From the NCBI GenBank assembly GCA_032433595.1, contig JASWJB010000307.1, forward strand, positions 1 through 54,030: a stretch of DNA of 54,030 nucleotides. Reading direction: 5' to 3'. A program made the position numbers and the translations under genes. Under the pieces are notes generated by a model. It was not told where the DNA came from. It saw nothing but the letters and a program-made list of their open reading frames with translations, and searched no databases. Position 1 is the first letter of the stretch, and each line of letters begins with the position of its first letter. Below are positions 12,105 to 51,389 of this stretch, piece after piece. The DNA comes from Conoideocrella luteorostrata (lineage: Eukaryota > Ascomycota > Sordariomycetes > Hypocreales > Clavicipitaceae).

Positions 12105-12970
12105 CTTGGCAACTTGTATATTGAATAGAGAGCTATGTGAGAATTGCCTGGCATGCTAGCCTCACTTTTGAGATCGGAAAGCGGCAGGCTGACCTGTCAA
12201 ATTTTTTTGAATGCGCTTGGGGCTGGGCTAGCCAGCTGCATACCAATAAAAAGATGCTAGCTGTTTGCAGGGGGCATCCAAGATTACCCACAATTGACAT
12301 GGCGACGGAAGATCGCCATATGTATCTATCATCATGCAAATAACCGTCACCTGTCGTACAAATAAGGCTGTCTGCGTGAGCCACCAAATCGGGGATGCCG
12401 ACGGAGAAATTACTCGGTTAAAATAAAAGGCCGAACTGGAGACGCGGCCACCAATCGTGACCCACCGCATAGTTGACACTGGAGTGGGTGGTGGCGGGCA
12501 ATGGAGCACACACTGGAACACACACTGGAGCACACACTGGAGCACACACTGGAGCACACACTGGAGCACACACTGGAGCACACTGGAGCACCCCGTACCG
12601 TCATCGGCACTTGGCACTTTTATCTCACCAGATGTTTTTCCCAGACGTTTTACAGCTTCCGTGGGGTCCAGCCTTCTCCAACTTGACGTCCCCTCCCGCC
12701 CCACCATAGCTACTCCGTATACGGAGAGGGAGGTATTTCCATGAATTGAACCATCAACTATCACCCGAGCTTCATCTATCAAAGCTGGACATAAGACATC
12801 GGTGGTTTTTACTTCTTCTTAGGAAGCTCTCTGACAGACCCTGATCTGTCGCACATATTGTCGGACAATCACTCTTGACTGTTAAGTTTAGCCTCGATAC
12901 AATTCTGTTTCACTTCTGCACTGCGCGGCGACCAATCATCATCTTCTTACTGCTTCAACTTGCTGACAGT
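12105..12970. other. Intergenic between regulator and glucosidase
   Basis: Contains a 12-bp minisatellite, a CTCCGTATACGGAG palindrome at about 12713, and the presumed promoter of the GH31 gene. Long open frames here are by-products of the 12-bp repeat, whose length is a multiple of three. Confidence 0.6.
12502..12591. repeat. 12-bp minisatellite ACACTGGAGCAC
   Basis: About seven tandem copies of ACACTGGAGCAC, nearly identical (one copy with GGAACAC), which suggests recent expansion or homogenisation. It lies about 400 bp upstream of the glucosidase start. Because the unit is 12 bp, all frames stay open across it and produce spurious repetitive peptides. Confidence 0.9.
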
Positions 12971-15373
12971 ATGGATAAATACACATTTCCCTGCGATCCA
13001 ACTGCCAAGCCGGCCGCAATTGTGTCTGGGCCAAACTACCGTTTCACCTTGATTAATGACACGGTTCTACGATACGAGTGGTCTGAAGATGGAGTCTATG
13101 AAGACCGTGCCTCTGCATTTGCCATTAATCGCAACTTTACCCCTCCGCACTATTCCGTCAAAGATACTGCCGAACAAATTGAGATAATCACTCGCAATAT
13201 TCATATCACATACGACAAGAAGCGTTTTAGTCGCAGCGGACTTGCTATTGCCTTCACTGCTAAAGTCACTGATTGGGGAGCAGACTGGCGCTATGGCGAG
13301 ACGGCGAGAGACAACCTTGGTGGCACAGCCCGAACTCTTGATGAAGTTGATGGTCGCTGTGACATGGGTCACGGCATTCTCTCTCGCTCTGGATTCTCTT
13401 CCCTCGATGATAGTGAGACCATGGTTTTCGATAGCAGGGGGACTGTGGCACCTCGGAGACCGGGTGATCGCATTGACGGTTACCTGTTTTCCTACGGCCA
13501 CGATTTTAAGGCAGCTATGAAGGCGTTTTATGACATCTCTGGACGTCAGCCCACGTTGCCAAGATGGGCTTTGGGCAATTGGTGGAGCCGCTATCACCCA
13601 TATACCGCAAATGAATATGTGGAACTGATGGACAAGTTTGCTAAGCGGCATGTCCCGCTGTCTGTTGCTGTAATAGACATGGACTGGCATCAAGTCAAAG
13701 GTGATCATATTCCACATGCTGGATGGACGGGGTACACCTGGAATAAAGAGCTGTTTCCTGACCCGGAGGCCTTTGGTAAGGCTCTCCACGACAGGGGATT
13801 GAAAATCACTCTCAATGATCATCCGCATGCCGGAGTGCATCACCATGAAGACTTGTATGAGACCATGGCCAAGGCTCTTGGGCACGACACTTCCGCAAAG
13901 GCCCCAATATTGTTCAATCCTACGGACCCAAAGTTTATGGATATCTACTTGGGCGTCTTACATCGTAGCCTGGAGAAGCATACCTGCGACTTTTGGTGGA
14001 TCGACTGGCAGCAAGGCCCTATTTCACGAATCCCTGGTCTGGATCCGCTATGGTTGTTAAATCATTTCCATTTCCAGGACCATGTTCGTCAAAACGGCGA
14101 GGGAAAAGGCATAATATTTTCACGTTATGCCGGCCCAGGAAGTCATCGCTATCCTGTAGGCTTCTCGGGTGACAGCATCGTAACCTGGGAATCGCTCAAA
14201 TTCCAGCCTGAATTTACGGCTACAGCGTCTAACATTGGCTACGGGTGGTGGAGTCACGATCTTGGCGGCCATATGGGCGGTTTTCGGGATGACGAAATGG
14301 CCACCAGGTGGGTTCAGTACGGCGTGTTCTCTCCCATTTTCAGATTGCATTCTTCGCTTAGTCAATGGACTTCCAAGGAGCCGTGGAACTACCGGAAAGA
14401 GTGCTGCAGTACAATGGAGTATTTCATGCAGTTTCGACATCGACTAGTTCCTTACTTGCACACTATGAATGTTACCGGTGGCGCCGAACCACTCGTGCGT
14501 CCGCTGTACTGGGAGCACCCAACTCGTGAGGAAGCTTACCAAAAGCCGAATGAGTACTTCTTCGGTTCAAGTCTGGTTGTTGCTCCGATCACTGAGCCGC
14601 GAAATCCAGATACTGGAATGGCCAAAGCAGATGTCTGGGTCCCTCCCGGACGACACGTCGACCTCTTCACTGGACTTGTGTACGATGGTGATCGGGAGAT
14701 TCAAATGTTCCGCTCGTTGGAGACTATTCCAGTCCTCGCACCTGAAGGATCTATCATTCCACTAGATGCAGAGGCCGATCCTAAGAATGGGTGCAAGAAC
14801 CCAGCTGAACTTGATGTTGTTATTGTGGTGGGGAAAGATGCAAAATTCACGATTGTAGAGGATCCAAACGATGATGATACGGACGGTACTGCCCACAGGA
14901 AAGACTCCAAAGCACGTGAAATCACCATTGAGTACAATCAATCGGAAGGTCGACTCCGTGTATCCGCGTCCTCCAAATGCTGGAGGTTCATATTTTTGGC
15001 CGTCAGGGCTGTACCATCTAACGTGCAGGTTAAGATCGGAGGTACTGATGTTGATAAATGCGAGGTTTACGTGGAAGACACTGTCAAGCCATTAGGATTG
15101 GTGGTTCGGGGTCCAAAAAACCCTACTGGGGACGTTGATGTTGAGGTCATGCTTGGAGCAGACCCGCAACTTAGTGTTATCGATAGGACTGCCCGCCTGA
15201 CGGCTTGGCTTCTGGCGGCACAGATGAGGTTTGACTTGAAGGATAAAGTGATGGCTGCCGCTACCGAGGGCAATAAGTCACTTGGTAGCAGGGTTGGAAG
15301 CCTGATGAGTTTGGGACTAGATGCCGGTATAGTTGGGCCGGTTTTGGAGCTGTTGACTGCTGATAGCCGTTGA
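12971..15373 (+). CDS. Glycoside hydrolase family 31 alpha-glucosidase
   Basis: Single exon, 800 residues from the chosen ATG. An in-frame ATG 32 codons upstream (12875) adds a hydrophobic stretch, and a secreted form cannot be excluded. Family role: retaining hydrolysis of terminal alpha-glucosidic (or alpha-xylosidic) bonds. Seen: an N-terminal beta-sandwich; LGNWWSRYHPYT and VAVIDMDWH at the start of the barrel; FWWIDWQQG with the likely nucleophile Asp near residue 345; FSRYAGPGSHRYPVGFSGD with the likely acid/base Asp near 401; IGYGWWSHDLGGHMGG; RLHSSLSQW; and RHRLVPYLHTMN before the C-terminal beta-domains. Lacking an obvious signal peptide from this start, it may be intracellular and act on imported maltose or isomaltose. 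The neighbouring zinc-cluster regulator fits this. Exact substrate is not known. Confidence 0.9.
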   Translation: MDKYTFPCDPTAKPAAIVSGPNYRFTLINDTVLRYEWSEDGVYEDRASAFAINRNFTPPHYSVKDTAEQIEIITRNIHITYDKKRFSRSGLAIAFTAKVTDWGADWRYGETARDNLGGTARTLDEVDGRCDMGHGILSRSGFSSLDDSETMVFDSRGTVAPRRPGDRIDGYLFSYGHDFKAAMKAFYDISGRQPTLPRWALGNWWSRYHPYTANEYVELMDKFAKRHVPLSVAVIDMDWHQVKGDHIPHAGWTGYTWNKELFPDPEAFGKALHDRGLKITLNDHPHAGVHHHEDLYETMAKALGHDTSAKAPILFNPTDPKFMDIYLGVLHRSLEKHTCDFWWIDWQQGPISRIPGLDPLWLLNHFHFQDHVRQNGEGKGIIFSRYAGPGSHRYPVGFSGDSIVTWESLKFQPEFTATASNIGYGWWSHDLGGHMGGFRDDEMATRWVQYGVFSPIFRLHSSLSQWTSKEPWNYRKECCSTMEYFMQFRHRLVPYLHTMNVTGGAEPLVRPLYWEHPTREEAYQKPNEYFFGSSLVVAPITEPRNPDTGMAKADVWVPPGRHVDLFTGLVYDGDREIQMFRSLETIPVLAPEGSIIPLDAEADPKNGCKNPAELDVVIVVGKDAKFTIVEDPNDDDTDGTAHRKDSKAREITIEYNQSEGRLRVSASSKCWRFIFLAVRAVPSNVQVKIGGTDVDKCEVYVEDTVKPLGLVVRGPKNPTGDVDVEVMLGADPQLSVIDRTARLTAWLLAAQMRFDLKDKVMAAATEGNKSLGSRVGSLMSLGLDAGIVGPVLELLTADSR

Positions 15374-20745: not shown

Positions 20746-22552
20746 TCACGAAGTCCCCTTCACAGCAGGATCATGCATGCCATGGAGTCCAATGGAAATG
20801 GGAAAGTCAGCCTCTGCCCGCCCCAGCTCAATCATCGTCTTGGCATCCAGGCACAGTAGATACGAGGTCTCTGCCGAACCATCCAGGACGAGACTCAGAA
20901 TAATGCCGTCATCTTCATCCGTTGCCCCGGGGCGAGCCACAAAGACCGGCTCACCAGGGGAGTGCCCCTGCGGTCCGCACCAGATCAGCGCATCCCGAGT
21001 GTGAATGTTGGTCTTAACAAGCGAGTCCACAAACGTAGCGAGGCCCCGAACACCTGCGCTGTAGACAAACTGGTACGGCTTGCCTGCATAAGCCGCATTG
21101 ATCACTGGCATTTCACCAGCATGAGGGCCGGGGATGGAAATAACTTCCTCTCCAGTTGCTGCGGCTGCAGCTGCAGCTGCCGCTTTATCGGCTTTCCGAT
21201 TCAGGGGAAGTCTAAATCTCTGGCGTGTAAAGCTGGGGTTAATCGTCTTGTATTTCTCGTCGTCGATCCAATACTTCTTGGTAGCGCCGTTTTGATCCAA
21301 AATCACATCGTAGAAGAAGCCGAACAAAACATCTGTCGATTCGTACTTGATATAATCTAGACAGATGTCAGTTCGCTTGACATCATCCTCGTACACATGC
21401 TCCTCGAATGCATTGACGGAGTGGAAGAAGAAGGCGGCGGGCGTTGAAAAGCGTGCGACAACGCCTTTGCCATGGCGGCGATCAACAACAATCCACTTCA
21501 TCGAATCAGCCTTGTTGAAGGGCTTTATGGCGCTGAGGAGCTGGCGGTCCCATAGAATCTTGATTCCTTTCCAAGCAAAGTGAGAGGTTGGGATGCACAG
21601 GATAACGTAGTTTTCTGTCAAGAACATGCTGTGTATGTACGCTGGACCAATTGCAGGATCCTTCACAGTGGCCAGAATGTCGGTTTTGCCCGTAGACGCA
21701 TTGACACGAAAAAAGCGGTAAGTCGCAACTGGGCCGGGCTGCAGGTTGTAGTTGTATAGGTCGCCAGTCTCAGGATCTCGTTGGGCATGAGCACAGGACA
21801 GGGCGCCTTTGAGATCTGGGTGCAGGCTGCTCTGGTTGGTGAAGCCAAGCGGCTCCAATGTGTCTGGGTTGACTTCTTGAATGCTGGCGGAGTCGGTAGC
21901 GAGATATAAATTCTTGATTTTGCTCTCAGCATTAGAGCGAGCCGGTGTCCTGGAAGTTACACCCGGCAGGTCTCGCTCCAGGAGGACGTTGTTCGTCAGG
22001 CGACGAGGCTCAAAGTAAGACATCACCTTGGCGAAAAGGCCGACACACGGGTCGTTCCGCTGACCAAATGAAGCGTTGCCGCGCCAGCCCGTCTTCTTGA
22101 TGTGCTCGACAAAATCGTCCGACTGGCGACGAGACGAGTAAGTGACGGTAGCTGTGCCGTCCTTTGTGGCAGGCGGGCAGATGTCAAACTTGTGGGTGTG
22201 CGCAAGGCCGTCAAACCAGTGCGAGACGTAGTGAGTTCCCAGTTTTGTGTTTTTGATGGCGCTTACTCCGGGCCCGGTTCTGTATAAAGATCCCGCTGCC
22301 CAGTCTGGGATGGAGCCTTTCACTTGCAGCTCGATTGGCCCCCTATGCTCGTCGAGCCCAACAAACTGCAATTATCGCAAGTTAATAAACCAACGCACCA
22401 GACTCTCGGGGGGGAGGATGTGGTCATCTCACAGCAGCTTTGTTAGGCCAGGATTTCCACGACTGCCCCAGCAAGTTGTCCTCACACAACTTCATGTCGG
22501 CCAGCTCATCTTGAGCGGTACGGAGATGCGTGCGAGTTTCGTTGAGAGCCAT
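20746..22552 (-). CDS. Carotenoid cleavage oxygenase (RPE65/BCO family)
   Basis: Two exons on the minus strand: 22552-22433 (40 codons) and 22365-20746, with a 66-nt intron (GTGAGA...TTGCAG, phase 0). The product is 579 residues. The splice joins QSWKSWPNKAA to FVGLDEHRGPIEL, the usual start of fungal family members. Family role: non-haem iron cleavage of polyene double bonds, for example beta-carotene to retinal or apocarotenals. Seen: the SLYRTGPG motif, and candidate iron-binding histidines in LSCAHAQRD, AYIHSMFLTEN, FFFHSVNAFEE and GLHGMHDPAV near the C-terminus, so the 4-His set appears complete. An alanine run (about nine) lies near residue 430. It is closer in feel to BCO2-like enzymes than to CarX, but the substrate cannot be assigned. 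No carotenoid synthesis genes are adjacent. Confidence 0.88.
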
Positions 22553-38255: not shown

Positions 38256-40151
38256 TCAGAACGCCAGCACATCGTCCCAACCGACTTCAGACCACAGCTC
38301 AGAGCCAAACCCAGCTTCATGTTCCAGCACAAGCTGCACTCTCCAGCTCAAACCGTTGTGGTGCTGTACCGGGCTGTCATTATAAGTACATACCACACGG
38401 ATGCGCTTCTTCAACCCATTGAAACCGGAGAGCTCGACAATCTCGCTTCTGCCGGAGCTGAAGCTCACTGTGTTGTTCCGGAGTCTCGCCTGCATGAATC
38501 CGACTGCCGCATCCATATCTTTGTCACCCATCTCATTATGCAAGGCCAAGGCGACCTTTGAGTTACTCTCCTTGACAAGACTGGCTCCGAACAGGCGAGA
38601 TAGCATTGCCGCTGTGGAAGATGAAGCCTGATCTATACCTGAAGCTGGCAATGATCCTACGACGCAAGCTATTGTCAGTTGGTACTGTCTCGGAACACCC
38701 AAAGGATCCAGCAGCTGAATCTGTGGGCAAAATCGACACACGCCCAGGACCGTAGCCGTTGACTTTGACACACGGGAGATCTCGCTGTCGCTGTAAACCC
38801 ACCACGCGGGAACCTCCTCCCATCGATGCACAGGCCACACTATGCAGTCTGTAGCGACTGGATCCAGATCGTCGATACCCAAGCACACTCTCCGCTCTTT
38901 GTTTGCGTCTATCAGCATCGTCATGTGCTGCCCTAGCAGCCGCAGTTCCCGTCCCTTGTACGGAAGACGCTCACCCTGGGTTGGTCCGCAGGGACCGCTT
39001 TCAAACACAAATCCGTCAGACACCTTCTCTACCGGCCGGTAGACGGCGCCTTTGGAAGTTTGCAATTCCAGGTACGTGCCAAAATAAGTACCTAAACGTC
39101 TGTCATCTTTGTGTTCCATGATACAAATGACCCCGCCTTGGAGGACACAACTGGACTGGAAGCTCATCTCTGTCCTAGTAGGCACAGCTACATGAGTCGA
39201 ATCATAGCGAGTGTCCTTGGCGATGACCTTGGAGTAGGCCTCGAGCGTCAGAAACTCCGAAGGCGCCCAAGCAAAGGCGCCGCGGTAGGGCGGTGGCCTC
39301 GTGGCGTGCCTGTACCGGCCAGGACGGTACTGAGGCAGAGGCATTCCTTCAGACGACCACAACAAGATTGACGGGTCACCCTCCTTGCGAGTAATTTCCT
39401 CCTGCAGCCGCTGGAAAGCCTTGTGGCCTTCGCCATATATGAGTGGCATATTGATGTCAAAAATACCCAGCAGGCAGTAGGCAATGTCCTCGGTGCGGGT
39501 TGTTTCGCGAGTGGCTACCCACGACATGCGCTGCCAAACCGACTTGGACAACAGCTGGCTGTTGTCGACGAGAATCTCAGCGTCAATCCGCGTGACAAGA
39601 TGCAGCAAATGACGGAGCGTCGTCTTGTCGCTGATCCTTCGCCATGAGGCGTCGAAAAACACCAGTCGAGACGGGGCAATCAGTTCCTGCAATGTCCATC
39701 CTCGGCTGAACCACCGGCACCTCGCAAACGGCGTGCTCAGCACGGCTTCCTTCCATAATTCATGACCATGTTCATGCAGCAACTCGAACCCATTCGGCAG
39801 CCCCACGAAAGGCTCGTCGTGTAGATCTGAGAGCAGGGCGTAGCATACGTCCGCTATGTGGTACCAGCGGTACATGGAATTGATGGCCTCGGACAACTCA
39901 GCACTGCTCTGCTTGTTTATGCAGCATGTGTCGATCCAGGCATAGCCGTAGCCCTCGGAATATGCGAGCTGGCACGCGCCACTGATTTTGGCAAAGCCGG
40001 CTTTGCGTCTCGCGACATCCAGATCAGCAAAGTCCTGGAACGATACCTCCTCGCTGCCCCATGTGTGCGATAAGATGGCATAGCGGACATTATCTGTCTC
40101 CGGGTCGTCAAACCATTCGAGCCCGAGAGATGCGGTGTTGATGAGCCACAT
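38256..40151 (-). CDS. HET-domain protein (heterokaryon incompatibility type)
   Basis: Single exon, 631 residues. HET domains mediate non-self recognition and cell death when incompatible fungal cells fuse; most family members are of unknown specificity. Seen: the N-terminal short lead MWLINTASLGLEWF, then RYAILSHTWGSEEVSFQDF, GYGYAWIDTCCINKQSSAEL and SRGWTLQELIAP, the three hallmark HET blocks (about residues 20-165). RLSWVATRETTRTEDIAYCLLGIF-type sequence follows, and a C-terminal region of about 400 residues without recognisable repeats. No stop or frameshift interrupts it, so it is probably intact. It is flanked by retroelement debris on one side and the microexon gene on the other. Confidence 0.9.
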   Translation of the reverse strand: MWLINTASLGLEWFDDPETDNVRYAILSHTWGSEEVSFQDFADLDVARRKAGFAKISGACQLAYSEGYGYAWIDTCCINKQSSAELSEAINSMYRWYHIADVCYALLSDLHDEPFVGLPNGFELLHEHGHELWKEAVLSTPFARCRWFSRGWTLQELIAPSRLVFFDASWRRISDKTTLRHLLHLVTRIDAEILVDNSQLLSKSVWQRMSWVATRETTRTEDIAYCLLGIFDINMPLIYGEGHKAFQRLQEEITRKEGDPSILLWSSEGMPLPQYRPGRYRHATRPPPYRGAFAWAPSEFLTLEAYSKVIAKDTRYDSTHVAVPTRTEMSFQSSCVLQGGVICIMEHKDDRRLGTYFGTYLELQTSKGAVYRPVEKVSDGFVFESGPCGPTQGERLPYKGRELRLLGQHMTMLIDANKERRVCLGIDDLDPVATDCIVWPVHRWEEVPAWWVYSDSEISRVSKSTATVLGVCRFCPQIQLLDPLGVPRQYQLTIACVVGSLPASGIDQASSSTAAMLSRLFGASLVKESNSKVALALHNEMGDKDMDAAVGFMQARLRNNTVSFSSGRSEIVELSGFNGLKKRIRVVCTYNDSPVQHHNGLSWRVQLVLEHEAGFGSELWSEVGWDDVLAF

Positions 40152-40874
40152 GGTTGTCTGGTCTTGAACTGTGCCCGACCGGATACAATCACTTTAGCTA
40201 CTTGGCTAGAGTAAGCACCAAGCCTAGGACAGGCTTGGGCATGCGCCGTGACGGCTCGCAACGTCACCGGACCAGCTCCCCTCTTGGTCCCCTGGCGCAG
40301 CAGAACATGCCTTTCACCCCACCATTGAGACAGCGCTAATAGGCCGTTTTTAGTCCTTTCAGAGTGGAGACTACGGAAATTTCATCGCTATTTGTTACTT
40401 GGGTGCGGGGCCACGATTCACTCAAACGTCGGCACCTGCTGGCTACTTACTGTCGTGCTCTTATGAAGAGGGACACTGGACGAAACCCTAAATAAAGACA
40501 CAATCGTAGTACGAAGAGGAGGCTTAGTCTCTTCCATCTACGGCGGGCTAGAACCTTTCCTTCTTATAACTAGTAACGCAGCGTGGCCAACTTGGTCAAG
40601 CTCAAACTCGTACCCGAGCGATCTGACCTCCCGTGGGGAATCACTTCCGCCAACGCATTGCATGTTTGGGATTGTGATACGCATCGCGAGACAAATCAGC
40701 ATATTTGTGCAAGGTTCACTTTGCCAGTATATTATTGACACCCTTGCGGTAGTCCCGCTAACGGTCGGCCGAGCTTAAACTCATGCTGAGAACTCCATAC
40801 AACGACCGCAGCCTCATAGCCAAAACCTATCCAAGCGTTCGAAGCCCGTCGCACGGTACCACCAGATACCGGAA
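40152..40874. other. Intergenic between microexon gene and HET gene
   Basis: Contains the 3' untranslated region of the microexon gene (minus strand) and the HET promoter. No other gene recognised. Confidence 0.45.
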
Positions 40875-42440
40875 TTACTGTAGCCGCAAGTTACATCGCC
40901 ATGCCGGTCAATCACAGGGTAAATACTTACGCACTGGCGTTGCGTTCACGTCAGCTCAGAGTGCAGATTCAAGGTTGGACGCCATTCAGCTGGGAGATAC
41001 TTACATACTGGTATTGTCATATTTATTAGCTTGCTGCGACAGAGTTTGTCGCCGATCACCCAGAGTACTTACACACTGGATTGTTGTTAGTATCATTGCA
41101 CTGCGATGTTTCGGTCCAACCACCATTTAAGTCACTTACACACTAGTTTTCACTGACGTTAGCACGTACAAATCTTTCACGCTCTTGTAACATCTGCGGG
41201 ATAGATACTTACACACTAGGTTTACGATATACATTAGTCTGCCGCCAAAACGCGGAAACGCCCGTATGGGGGTACTTACTCCCTATGTTTGCAGTTACGT
41301 ATAAGCATGATATGAGCTGTCAAGGCTCCCCGGGAATATTAGATACTTACTCCCTGGGTTGGCCCACCAATATTAGCACGTTGTGGCGAGTTCCATCCAT
41401 ATTTGAGATGGATACTTACTGGCTAAAGTTGCAACGGCATTAGCATACGTGAGCCATCGAGTGTCGCTATGGAAAGACACTTACTCCCTTCAACGTACAT
41501 ACGTGTCAGCAAAATGCGAATTATTCGGTACCTGTGGCCAACCGCAGGATAACTTACTTCCTGGAAGTTTGTTTTTTAATTTAGCGAATTGCTGGTTAGA
41601 ATGAATAAAGGGCGGCAAGGGGGAAAACTAACGCACTATAATCACCAAATTGTATTTAGTATGTGGCAAATTATAAGGTCGAGTTATTGCGGGAGGTTAC
41701 TTACTGGCTGCACTTGTCATATCAATAGCCGAGACTTGTCATCGTCAAGCGTTGATACTTACTCCCTGTAGTCGCCACCTGCGTTAACGTCGACACGAAA
41801 AAACTGAAAGACCGTGGAATTTAGAATATATACTCACACACTGTAGTTGTAGTATGTTTGGTTAAATCACAGTCGCCAAACCGCATGGTTGCTGCTCAAT
41901 AAATACTCACACACTAGCAATATTCGACCACGTCAGTATACCCAACAGACTTAAATGTTATCATAGATCGGGGGGTAGATTCTTACCGGCTAGAATTCCC
42001 CCTCCACTTCAGCATATTGCACAGTTAAGTGGATGCAGAATAATAAGATAATCACTCACTGGCTAAACAAGCGAGATATTTGAGCACTCGTACTTCTCTG
42101 TTAGAATCGAGATACTTACCGGCTGGATTTTGTCAGTGATTTTAGCAATTCTTGACCATTGGGATCCAATAGTAATATCCTATCAGAAACTTACGCACTG
42201 GAGTTTGCCAACTGTATTAGCATATCATTGAAGCCAAGAGTTGTGATTGAACGTGAATTCATGCTTACATCCTGAACGGTAGCCACGAACATCAGACAGA
42301 ATGGTCATTTTTTACGCGACAAAAACCAGATGGTAGAGTCTTACGCGTTTGAAAACACCTGCGTCGGACTCTGCCACCAAGACTGGATTGGCAAGTCCAA
42401 GTCCAGCAGCAGCTACGAGAAGCACCATAGTAAACTTCAT
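40875..42440 (-). CDS. Secreted prepropeptide gene with 20 single-codon microexons
   Basis: The first exon, 42440-42345 (32 codons), encodes signal peptide MKFTMVLLVAAAGLGLA, an acidic pro-segment and a final Lys-Arg, a kexin-type site. Then come exons of exactly 3 nt: 42269-42271 Asp; 42195-42197 Cys; 42120-42122 Pro; 42060-42062 Pro; 41987-41989 Pro; 41911-41913 Cys; 41838-41840 Cys; 41763-41765 Gly; 41705-41707 Pro; 41633-41635 Cys; 41558-41560 Glu; 41485-41487 Gly; 41420-41422 Pro; 41351-41353 Gly; 41280-41282 Gly; 41213-41215 Cys; 41140-41142 Cys; 41073-41075 Cys; 41005-41007 Tyr; 40931-40933 Cys. The terminal exon begins with TAA at 40877-40875. The 21 introns are 53-73 nt, all phase 0. 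Donors are mostly GTAAGT, with GTGAGT, GTAAGA, GTAAGC and GTTAGT also used. Acceptors are CAG (12), TAG (8) and AAG (1), usually with a CTAAY or CTGAC branch site 15-30 nt upstream. The predicted product is 52 residues; the mature 20 residues hold 8 Cys, 5 Pro and 4 Gly. Function is unknown; this is a secreted cysteine-rich peptide by inference. A neighbouring minus-strand gene (43444) also encodes a secreted cysteine-rich protein. Confidence 0.85.
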
Positions 42441-50321: not shown

Positions 50322-51389
50322 ATGCGTGTCACTACCAGCTTCATAGCCGCCGGTCTTCTCGTTGGCTCCACCCTTGCGGACATCACAACCATCCGAAACT
50401 CCTTATTTGATGTCATGAAAAAAGCAAAAGATCTAGACAAAGCCCTCGTCACATGGTCCGGCAGCCTGACCTCTGGGGGTGACATGCTGTGCAAGACAGT
50501 AGCTCTCCGCAAATCCTTCAAGGCATGCACCCAGGCGTTTCAAACTTCGCAGCCTCTGAAGAACAGCGACCTGACCAACAAAAACGCCCTTCCTCTGGTG
50601 CGGCTAGCCAACGTCATGTTCGATCTGAAGGATCACGCCGTCGAGGCAAGGCCCAAGTTTGATCGCATCGGGGCCACCGCGGCTATGTTTGAGATAATCA
50701 AGGCACAAAAAGAGCCGGCGTCGGAAATGTCCAATGCCATGGCCGCAATCCTTGAGAAGCTGCCTCCGGGCTTCAAGGACTCCAGTCTCCCCTTGCCTGC
50801 GGGCCAGGTGAAGGTCTTGGACTTTGCGCGTACATTTATGAACAAGGAACTTGATGATTTGCTCAAGAAGCTCCAGCCCCGGCCGGAGCAGGTCTCACCT
50901 TTCACCCCGTTTGTCCTAATGGCTGTCAAGTTTAGCGAGTCCATTGATGCGGTACCCTTCTGTCAAGTTGCTCCACAGCTCATGACCTTCCTGGGCAGCC
51001 AGAAAAGCATTCCGCTCGGGGACCTTACCGACAAGGTTCTCAAGATTCTTGATGCGTCTGGGGTTCAGGATCAGGTTCCCATCGACATCATTCGCAAGAA
51101 TGCAGAGGCCATTGGCATTCCCTCTGATACGATCCCGAAACTTCTAGATGCGTTTGGCGTCAGGGCTCAGGGCTTGCCTCTTCGAGCTTTTACCCAAAAA
51201 GCCCCCGGCCTCATCAAGCAGTTCAATCTTCAGGGTCTATCAGTGGATCCGTCAAGGATTACTCGATTTGTCAATCTGTTTGTGGAAAGCACACTGGGTT
51301 CTGCAGCTCGTGGTGTAGCCCTGTCTCGTATAAAGACTCTGAATCAGGGTGGTAAGGTTCTAAGCAGGGTTGGTCGTGCCTACGGCTGA
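50322..51389 (+). CDS. Secreted protein with HsbA-like N-terminal region
   Basis: Single exon, 355 residues. Signal peptide MRVTTSFIAAGLLVGSTLA is followed by DITTIRNSLFDVMKKAKDLD, which resembles the start of HsbA/cell-wall galactomannoprotein domains, all-helical secreted fungal proteins that bind hydrophobic surfaces. The two cysteines at about residues 65-77 and the amphipathic helices fit. The protein is about twice the usual length, with a further 200-residue helical, Pro- and Lys-rich extension that I do not recognise. No GPI signal is evident, since the C-terminus (KVLSRVGRAYG) is not hydrophobic. Likely secreted or wall-associated. Family call is moderate. Confidence 0.7.
   Translation: MRVTTSFIAAGLLVGSTLADITTIRNSLFDVMKKAKDLDKALVTWSGSLTSGGDMLCKTVALRKSFKACTQAFQTSQPLKNSDLTNKNALPLVRLANVMFDLKDHAVEARPKFDRIGATAAMFEIIKAQKEPASEMSNAMAAILEKLPPGFKDSSLPLPAGQVKVLDFARTFMNKELDDLLKKLQPRPEQVSPFTPFVLMAVKFSESIDAVPFCQVAPQLMTFLGSQKSIPLGDLTDKVLKILDASGVQDQVPIDIIRKNAEAIGIPSDTIPKLLDAFGVRAQGLPLRAFTQKAPGLIKQFNLQGLSVDPSRITRFVNLFVESTLGSAARGVALSRIKTLNQGGKVLSRVGRAYG

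What the first reader, a model, noticed from the sequence alone, without database searches (positions are those of the whole stretch)
40875..42440. A secreted-peptide gene made of 20 consecutive three-nucleotide exons
On the minus strand, a signal-peptide exon ending in Lys-Arg is followed by 20 sites with the form AG-NNN-GT, each exactly three bases between a good acceptor and a good donor, and then AG-TAA. All 21 introns are 53-73 nt and phase 0. Chance cannot plausibly produce 20 in a row with exactly 3-nt spacing, no stop codon among the 20, and a stop immediately after the last acceptor. The encoded 20 residues are strongly non-random (8 Cys, 5 Pro, 4 Gly). Single 3-nt microexons are known in plants and animals, and microexon genes with longer exons are known in schistosomes and aphids. 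A fungal gene that codes a mature peptide one codon per exon is, to my knowledge, undescribed.
Basis: partly seen in the sequence, partly recalled or inferred. Interest (0 to 1): 0.98.

Follow-up and report, generated by a model that had tools for sequence, protein, structure and literature searches.

The report
A gene with one-codon exons
In a fungus that is very likely an insect pathogen, a gene carries twenty three-base stretches in a row, each framed by its own splice signals, so that each of the last twenty amino acids of a likely secreted peptide would come from its own exon; two more such arrays lie in the same genome, and if splicing works as predicted these would be among the most finely split genes known.

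Summary
On the minus strand (42440-40875) a signal-peptide-like exon ending Lys-Arg is followed by 20 triplets framed by splice sites, then AG-TAA. A splice-signal search with no exon-length or frame preference returns 21 introns and 20 of 20 internal exons of 3 nt; the best of 500 dinucleotide shuffles gives 6 introns and one 3-nt exon. It is not alone: the same genome has an array of about 30 short exons on C15 (homologous signal exon, Lys-Arg, mostly one-codon exons, stop) and one of 45 read, likely about 60, on C5. A conserved 62-bp element lies 3' of all three, though 1 kb away on C5, and also at loci without arrays. C5 and C307 introns appear related. Donors have lost exon-side pairing to U1 and gained intron-side pairing. 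A protein hit on a contig of identical length points to Conoideocrella luteorostrata, a scale-insect pathogen. I infer ordered 5'-to-3' splicing, one codon per step, then Kex2 release of a cysteine-rich peptide. No RNA evidence was available; splicing and secretion are predicted. Ten library searches found no comparable gene.

The parts
42345..42440 (-). Exon 1 (96 nt): signal-peptide-like leader and short pro-region ending Lys-Arg; donor gtaaga follows
   Evidence: similar to the C15 signal exon
42269..42271 (-). one-codon exon 1, GAT (Asp)
42195..42197 (-). one-codon exon 2, TGC (Cys)
42120..42122 (-). one-codon exon 3, CCG (Pro)
42060..42062 (-). one-codon exon 4, CCA (Pro)
41987..41989 (-). 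one-codon exon 5, CCG (Pro)
41911..41913 (-). one-codon exon 6, TGT (Cys)
41838..41840 (-). one-codon exon 7, TGT (Cys)
41763..41765 (-). one-codon exon 8, GGA (Gly)
41705..41707 (-). one-codon exon 9, CCA (Pro)
41633..41635 (-). one-codon exon 10, TGC (Cys)
41558..41560 (-). one-codon exon 11, GAA (Glu)
41485..41487 (-). one-codon exon 12, GGA (Gly)
41420..41422 (-). one-codon exon 13, CCA (Pro)
41351..41353 (-). one-codon exon 14, GGA (Gly)
41280..41282 (-). one-codon exon 15, GGA (Gly)
41213..41215 (-). one-codon exon 16, TGT (Cys)
41140..41142 (-). one-codon exon 17, TGT (Cys)
41073..41075 (-). one-codon exon 18, TGT (Cys)
41005..41007 (-). one-codon exon 19, TAT (Tyr)
40931..40933 (-). 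one-codon exon 20, TGC (Cys)
40878..42344 (-). 21 introns of 53-73 nt, all phase 0, interleaved with the 20 one-codon exons
40875..40877 (-). TAA stop, directly after the last acceptor; start of the terminal exon
40753..40814 (-). Conserved 62-bp element, 60 nt after the stop; six copies found in the genome, one on the 3' side of each of the three arrays

Best explanation
This is a gene in which a signal-peptide-like exon is followed by 20 triplets, each framed by its own acceptor and donor; these are predicted to be exons spliced one after another so that each step would add one codon, and the product would likely be a secreted cysteine-rich peptide of 20 residues. Shown from sequence: the splice signals, the frame, the stop, two further arrays in the same genome, a paralogue (C15) with the same layout and a similar signal exon, a statistical kinship of C307 and C5 introns, and donors whose U1 pairing has shifted to the intron side. 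Inferred: U1 is known to pair with about three exon bases (general knowledge), so on a 3-nt exon U1 and the acceptor machinery just upstream would compete, and introns would have to be removed in 5'-to-3' order: removal of intron k joins the growing message to one codon and puts donor k+1 behind a real exon, a ratchet with a step of one codon. Inferred: Kex2 cuts after Lys-Arg and releases DCPPPCCGPCEGPGGCCCYC with up to four disulfides. Inferred: as every exon is a whole codon in phase 0, skipping any subset keeps the frame, so the array could make many peptide variants. Inferred origin: repeated duplication of an [intron + 3 nt] unit of about 73 nt.
For: Chain search: 20 of 20 internal exons are 3 nt, against at most one in 500 shuffles. 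Paralogous arrays with permissive donors: C5, 41 of 43 internal exons are 3 nt and the other two have a 3-nt alternative acceptor (by eye); C15, 25 of 30 are 3 nt, three 6, one 12, and one 2 with a 3-nt alternative (by eye). Three motif hits continue C5 at 1.04, 7.05 and 15.05 units of 73.3 nt. The C15 signal exon ends EKR-GP at a donor. Signal exons of C307 and C15 align with score 57, against shuffles of mean 22.3, sd 7.3, maximum 56 of 2,000. Protein P0011 from another source is 24 of 31 identical to the C15 signal exon, and the identity ends where the C15 donor begins. The public predicted model QQS21_001433 uses the 12-nt and 6-nt exons that I had noted on C15 before that search. The 3' element is 87% identical over 62 bp between C307 and C15. 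Profile of 20 C5 introns, splice signals kept and the rest shuffled as null: held-out C5 introns 26.1 against 9.1 (22 of 24 scored); C307 15.8 against 7.0, p 4e-5 (20 of 21 scored); 11 ordinary introns -0.3 against 0.5. U1 candidates start ATACTTACCTTG; C307 donors match the exon side in 0.24 of 3 and the intron side in 7.05 of 8 bases, against 1.35 and 5.70 in 20 ordinary donors (p 3e-5, 9e-5). Bases +7+8, which the chain search does not score, are AT in 11 of 21 C307 donors against 1 of 18 ordinary ones (p 0.002).
Against: No transcript, peptide or population data. No protein of suitable length in 5.8 billion shares three 5-residue words with the 52-residue product. C307 and C15 mature peptides are not similar (p 0.80), and BLASTP finds no alignment between the two signal exons. 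Single C307 introns match the C5 model only weakly: five hits, E 0.075 to 0.44, and no hit on C15. C15 introns fit the C5 profile weakly (p 0.07, 25 of 31 scored), and the C15 intron-side donor gain is not significant (p 0.08). Plain pairwise intron alignments exceed shuffles only slightly. 7 of 21 C307 introns lack a CTRAY in the last 42 bases and 7 of 21 have no in-frame stop. The 3' element is not specific to arrays: C224 has it behind an intronless cysteine-rich ORF, and C178 has it with no array in 1.9 kb; on C5 the 200 nt read near it show no clear site. On C15 the search put the last acceptor 11 nt beyond the GCA-TAA exon that I read by eye. Array donors were picked by a search that rewards good donors, which favours the intron-side comparison at +3 to +6.
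Confidence: 0.82

Rival explanations
1. The AG-NNN-GT sites are ratchet points of one long intron: exon 1 is spliced to a distant exon in steps and the 3-nt segments are mostly skipped, so they do not code.
For: Stepwise removal of long introns through adjoining acceptor-donor pairs is known elsewhere (recalled). The 3' element also occurs without an array, so the array is not needed for it.
Against: 20 of 20 C307 triplets are sense codons, with 8 Cys, 5 Pro and 4 Gly, and a stop follows the last acceptor directly. Candidate introns of this genome had a median of 72 nt in a search limited to 45-129 nt, and a 1.5-kb intron would be unusual for such a fungus (general knowledge). Zero-length ratchets leave no 3-nt residue (recalled). 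C15 mixes 3-, 6- and 12-nt exons, multiples of three with one ambiguous exception.
Confidence: 0.08
2. The array is real and spliced but is a decaying or non-coding relic: intron duplication produced it and the peptide has no function.
For: No homologue of the product found; mature peptides of C307 and C15 do not align; intron kinship points to duplication.
Against: No stop in any one-codon exon of C307, and both signal exons stay open. Donors are strong and shifted in pairing. The splice signals survive although the introns have diverged below detection by a tandem repeat finder.
Confidence: 0.07
3. Chance or a simple repeat that mimics splice sites.
For: Only the regular spacing.
Against: Shuffles; no tandem repeat reported in C307 or C5; three loci with the same organisation.
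Confidence: 0.01

Closest known systems
Schistosome micro-exon genes (MEGs)
   Same: Short symmetric exons, a signal peptide, secreted products, and variation by alternative splicing in MEGs that is possible here (PMC5825161, passages).
   Different: MEG exons are 6-36 bp and make about 80% of the coding region (same passages). Here they are 3 nt and 60 of 156 coding nt. Different kingdom; no sequence comparison with MEGs was made.
Aphid bicycle genes (and megacycle)
   Same: Many unusually small internal exons of one phase in effector candidates; a megacycle gene has more than 100 microexons (PMC9168663, passages).
   Different: Bicycle internal exons are almost all phase 2; here phase 0 and one codon each. 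The passages seen give no bicycle exon of one codon.
Single 3-nt microexons (Drosophila homothorax, RPS24)
   Same: A three-base exon can be spliced (PMC7392893, PMC12686416: search listings).
   Different: Reported as single or few microexons in a conventional gene, not 20 to about 60 one-codon exons in a row.
Fungal introner-like elements, sister introns and stwintrons
   Same: Families of related fungal introns that multiply (PMC4457414, PMC8469720: abstract starts and passages).
   Different: Those are described as copies in unrelated genes, or as an intron within an intron; here related introns are strung head to tail 3 nt apart, and DNA of the C5 array found only itself in the genome.
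Trichoderma Xlr2 microexon
   Same: A functional microexon in a hypocrealean fungus (PMC11121469, abstract and passages).
   Different: One 20-nt exon in a transcription factor gene.

Membership tests
Schistosome-type micro-exon gene | short symmetric exons of 6-36 bp | tested here: not met
   20 of 20 are 3 nt, symmetric but below the range (definition)
Schistosome-type micro-exon gene | about 80% of coding region in short exons | tested here: not met
   60 of 156 nt in C307 (from coordinates)
Schistosome-type micro-exon gene | encodes a signal peptide | tested here: met
   by reading the sequence of C307 and C15; no signal-peptide program was run
Schistosome-type micro-exon gene | protein variants by alternative splicing | not testable with these tools
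   no RNA data
Aphid bicycle gene | internal exons almost all phase 2 | tested here: not met
   all phase 0 (definition)
Aphid bicycle gene | many unusually small internal exons | tested here: met
   20 internal exons of 3 nt
Introner-like element array | near-identical intron copies in unrelated genes | tested here: not met
   C5 array DNA finds only itself in the genome; diverged copies would be missed
Introner-like element array | introns share ancestry | tested here: met
   C5 and C307 by profile, single hits weak; C15 inconclusive
Kex2-processed secreted peptide | leader, then dibasic site before the mature peptide | tested here: met
   Lys-Arg ends exon 1 in C307 and lies two residues before its end in C15
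Kex2-processed secreted peptide | cleavage and release | not testable with these tools
   needs mass spectrometry
Granulin domain (C15 only) | cysteine pattern aligns to granulin | tested here: inconclusive
   best PDB match 1g26, E 0.056 over 19 residues; no Pfam match

The most novel reading that the evidence does not exclude
A new class of gene in which exon equals codon: the spliceosome acts as a codon-by-codon assembler, advancing in order along up to about 60 consecutive one-codon exons. Because any subset keeps the frame, one locus can output a large library of secreted peptide variants at the interface between fungus and insect.
Probability: 0.4. Interest if true: 0.98.

Novelty: new variant of a known kind. 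Interest (0 to 1): 0.95.

Why it matters
If spliced as predicted, a whole mature peptide is built one residue per splice, which turns the 3-nt exon from an oddity into a rule of construction. It makes directly testable how two spliceosomal sites 3 nt apart are used in turn, whether the order is enforced, and how an intron array grows. Such genes would be hard for standard gene finders and short-read aligners to see: the public model of the C15 gene leaves out the first five 3-nt exons and then reads into an intron. More may be hidden in sequenced genomes. If skipping occurs, it would be a further case, after schistosomes and aphids, of secreted host-interface proteins made from tiny exons of uniform phase.

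Tried and rejected
Chance: rejected by shuffles and controls. Tandem repeat: none reported by TRF in C307 or in L041 of C5. Pairwise intron alignment against block shuffles gave only a small excess: within C307 0.171 against 0.150, within C15 0.172 against 0.156, within C5 0.220 against 0.181, between arrays 0.154-0.170 against 0.147-0.153; a profile shows the kinship better, while single C307 introns reach only E 0.075-0.44. Known RNA: one weak Rfam match, 18.6 bits against a cut-off of 90, discounted. Fold of the 3' element: z -0.70, no evidence of structure. Homologues of the C307 product: none. Domains: none for the C307, C15 or C5 products. PDB: none for the 20-mer; weak granulin match for C15; one match at E 1.4 for the C5 product, discounted. 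Exon-1 searches found only themselves. Codon-motif searches: Cys 15 hits, 5 in C307, the other 10 read as 3-kb loci, no array. Gly 12 hits, 3 in C307, 3 in C5, 1 in C15, the other 5 read, no array. Pro 11 hits, 2 in C307, the other 9 not read. SYT 26 hits, 6 in C5, 20 elsewhere not read. RAY 15 hits, 1 in C5, 1 in C15, 13 elsewhere not read. Outside the three arrays no two hits lie within 3 kb of each other, but an array with a single hit could hide there: C15 itself was found through one Gly hit. These motifs would also miss arrays with other codons or donors. The sixth 3'-element locus (C23) could not be read. The ordinary-intron set is small and partly false: 61 candidates by open-frame bridging, of which 18, 11 or 20 with a good donor were used. 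Intron counts use the chains, which include the few ambiguous sites on C5 and C15. Papers: 10 searches in a PubMed Central library without preprints and without most subscription journals.

Full report
What is there. The window is the whole of contig C307 (54,030 bases) of a 46.4-Mb genome in 620 contigs. On the minus strand, exon 1 (42440-42345) encodes MKFTMVLLVAAAGLGLANPVLVAESDAGVFKR. Twenty AG-NNN-GT sites follow, then AG-TAA. The triplets give DCPPPCCGPCEGPGGCCCYC. The stated coordinates, intron lengths (53-73 nt), phase and composition are all correct.

Is it more than chance. I wrote a chain search that scores donor, branch site, acceptor and intron length, and has no preference for exon length or frame. 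On the 3.1 kb around the finding it returns 21 introns and 20 internal exons, all 3 nt; with a stricter threshold it keeps 10 introns and 9 exons, all 3 nt. In 500 dinucleotide shuffles of 1,701 bases the maxima were 6 introns and one 3-nt exon. Twenty 10-kb pieces of contig C1 on both strands gave at most 3 introns, with a 3-nt exon in one two-intron chain, and the rest of the window gave at most 2 introns. I set the weights by hand after seeing the array, so the comparison with shuffles and controls is the test.

It is a family. Short motif searches for an acceptor, a codon and a donor found two more arrays. C5, minus strand, 278427-275201: 43 internal exons by the chain search with permissive donors, 41 of them 3 nt and the other two with a 3-nt alternative acceptor by eye. 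With a TTT site before and a GGC site after, 45 sites are read, and three motif hits continue the 73-nt register to about 15 units further, so about 60 exons are likely. C15, minus strand, 53920 to about 51850: signal exon MKVVSVLIVAFAGFAFANPVAMEEQLEKRGP, then 30 short exons (25 are 3 nt, three 6, one 12, and one scored as 2 with a 3-nt alternative), and by eye a last exon GCA-TAA, where the search chose an acceptor 11 nt further on. The signal exons of C307 and C15 are alike beyond shuffles that keep their regional make-up (score 57, maximum of 2,000 shuffles 56), though BLASTP does not align them. The mature peptides are not alike (p 0.80). A conserved leader with a divergent mature peptide is usual for fast-evolving secreted peptides (general knowledge). 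The C5 first exon was not read. Five motif searches show no further cluster, but 42 single hits elsewhere (9 Pro, 20 SYT, 13 RAY) were not read.

A shared 3' element. A 62-bp stretch 60 nt after the C307 stop is 87% identical behind C15, and similar copies lie on the 3' side of C5, at C224, at C178 and at C23. On C5 it lies about 1.1 kb past the last motif hit, and the 200 nt read near it show no clear site. C224 carries it behind an intronless cysteine-rich ORF whose relatives occur in Mariannaea, Verticillium and Trichoderma. C178 has no array in 1.9 kb; C23 was not read. The element links the arrays but is not specific to them, and I have no evidence that it folds.

Intron kinship. A sequence model from 20 C5 introns was run over 161 kb made of the window, part of C5, C15 and 100 kb of C1. 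Apart from 40 matches in C5 itself, the matches at E up to 10 were five in the window, all inside the C307 array; each is weak (E 0.075 to 0.44), and C15 had none. With donor, branch pentamer and acceptor kept and the rest shuffled, held-out C5 introns fall from 26.1 to 9.1 (22 of 24 scored) and C307 introns from 15.8 to 7.0 (20 of 21 scored, p 4e-5); C15 falls from 3.5 to 1.6 (25 of 31 scored, p 0.07), and 11 ordinary introns do not fall (introns outside 55-80 nt were left out). C5 and C307 introns therefore probably share ancestry; C15 is open. Growth by duplication of an [intron + codon] unit is my inference.

How it would be spliced. The two U1 candidates begin ATACTTACCTTG. Ordinary donors here match its complement in 1.35 of 3 exon bases and 5.70 of 8 intron bases (20 donors). 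C307 donors match in 0.24 of 3 and 7.05 of 8 (p 3e-5 and 9e-5); C5 shows the same shift, and C15 shows the exon-side loss but no significant gain (p 0.08). Bases +7+8, which the chain search does not score, are AT in 11 of 21 C307 donors and in 1 of 18 ordinary ones (p 0.002). Recognition seems to have moved into the intron, which leaves the codon free to encode Cys, Pro or Gly. U1 is known to pair with about three exon bases (general knowledge), so neighbouring sites would compete. I infer ordered removal from the 5' end, one codon per step. In-frame skipping of any subset is possible by design; whether it happens is unknown.

Who it is. A protein search with the C15 product returned QQS21_001433 of Conoideocrella luteorostrata on a contig of 275,379 bases, exactly the length of C15. 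The species belongs to the Clavicipitaceae and is a pathogen of scale insects (PMC12352038, first of two parts of the text read: 47.39 Mb, 864 scaffolds, annotation by funannotate with protein evidence, no RNA mentioned in the part read). The genome held here is 46.4 Mb in 620 contigs, so the two are not the same set of contigs in full. That public model contains the 12-nt and 6-nt exons that I had already noted, omits the first five 3-nt ones, and runs from the CCT exon into its intron. A second protein, P0011, from another source is 24 of 31 identical to the C15 signal exon and departs where the C15 donor begins; its DNA could not be read. No protein matched the C307 product.

What it is like and what it is not. 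It works like schistosome MEGs and aphid bicycle genes: proteins with many tiny exons of uniform phase, secreted or effector-like. It fails defining tests of MEGs (exon size, coding share) and of bicycle genes (phase). 3-nt exons are known (listings), and a functional fungal microexon is on record (PMC11121469). Ten searches of the held library found no gene made of consecutive one-codon exons; preprints and most subscription journals are not held. I rate it as a new variant, at the extreme limit, of the microexon-gene kind. It becomes a class of its own if ordered one-codon splicing or combinatorial output is shown.

What is missing. There is no RNA, no peptide and no second species in which an array could be read. 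These would decide it.

Noticed in passing
G000:C224:36190-38090 (L053), minus strand: An intronless cysteine-rich secreted-type ORF of 80 codons lies just upstream of the conserved 3' element; 9 relatives found, among them Mariannaea, Verticillium and Trichoderma.
   Followed up: partly
G000:C15:53920-51850, minus (L044, L052): The product of the C15 array resembles granulin weakly (CPDNYNCC...WGC; PDB E 0.056), although most residues there come from separate exons.
   Followed up: partly
G000:C23:67446-67496, minus: Sixth copy of the 3' element; upstream sequence not read and may hold another family member.
   Followed up: no
window 38256-40151, minus: A HET-domain ORF (PF06985, E 2e-14) lies downstream of the array on the same strand.
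   Followed up: no
window 50322-51389, plus: HsbA-domain (hydrophobic surface binding protein) ORF.
   Followed up: no
window 20746-22371, minus, and 12875-15373, plus: RPE65-family and glycosyl hydrolase family 31 ORFs.
   Followed up: no
L002 and L003 at 1501: Two diverged U1 snRNA candidates with the same first 12 bases; both score below the Rfam cut-off.
   Followed up: partly
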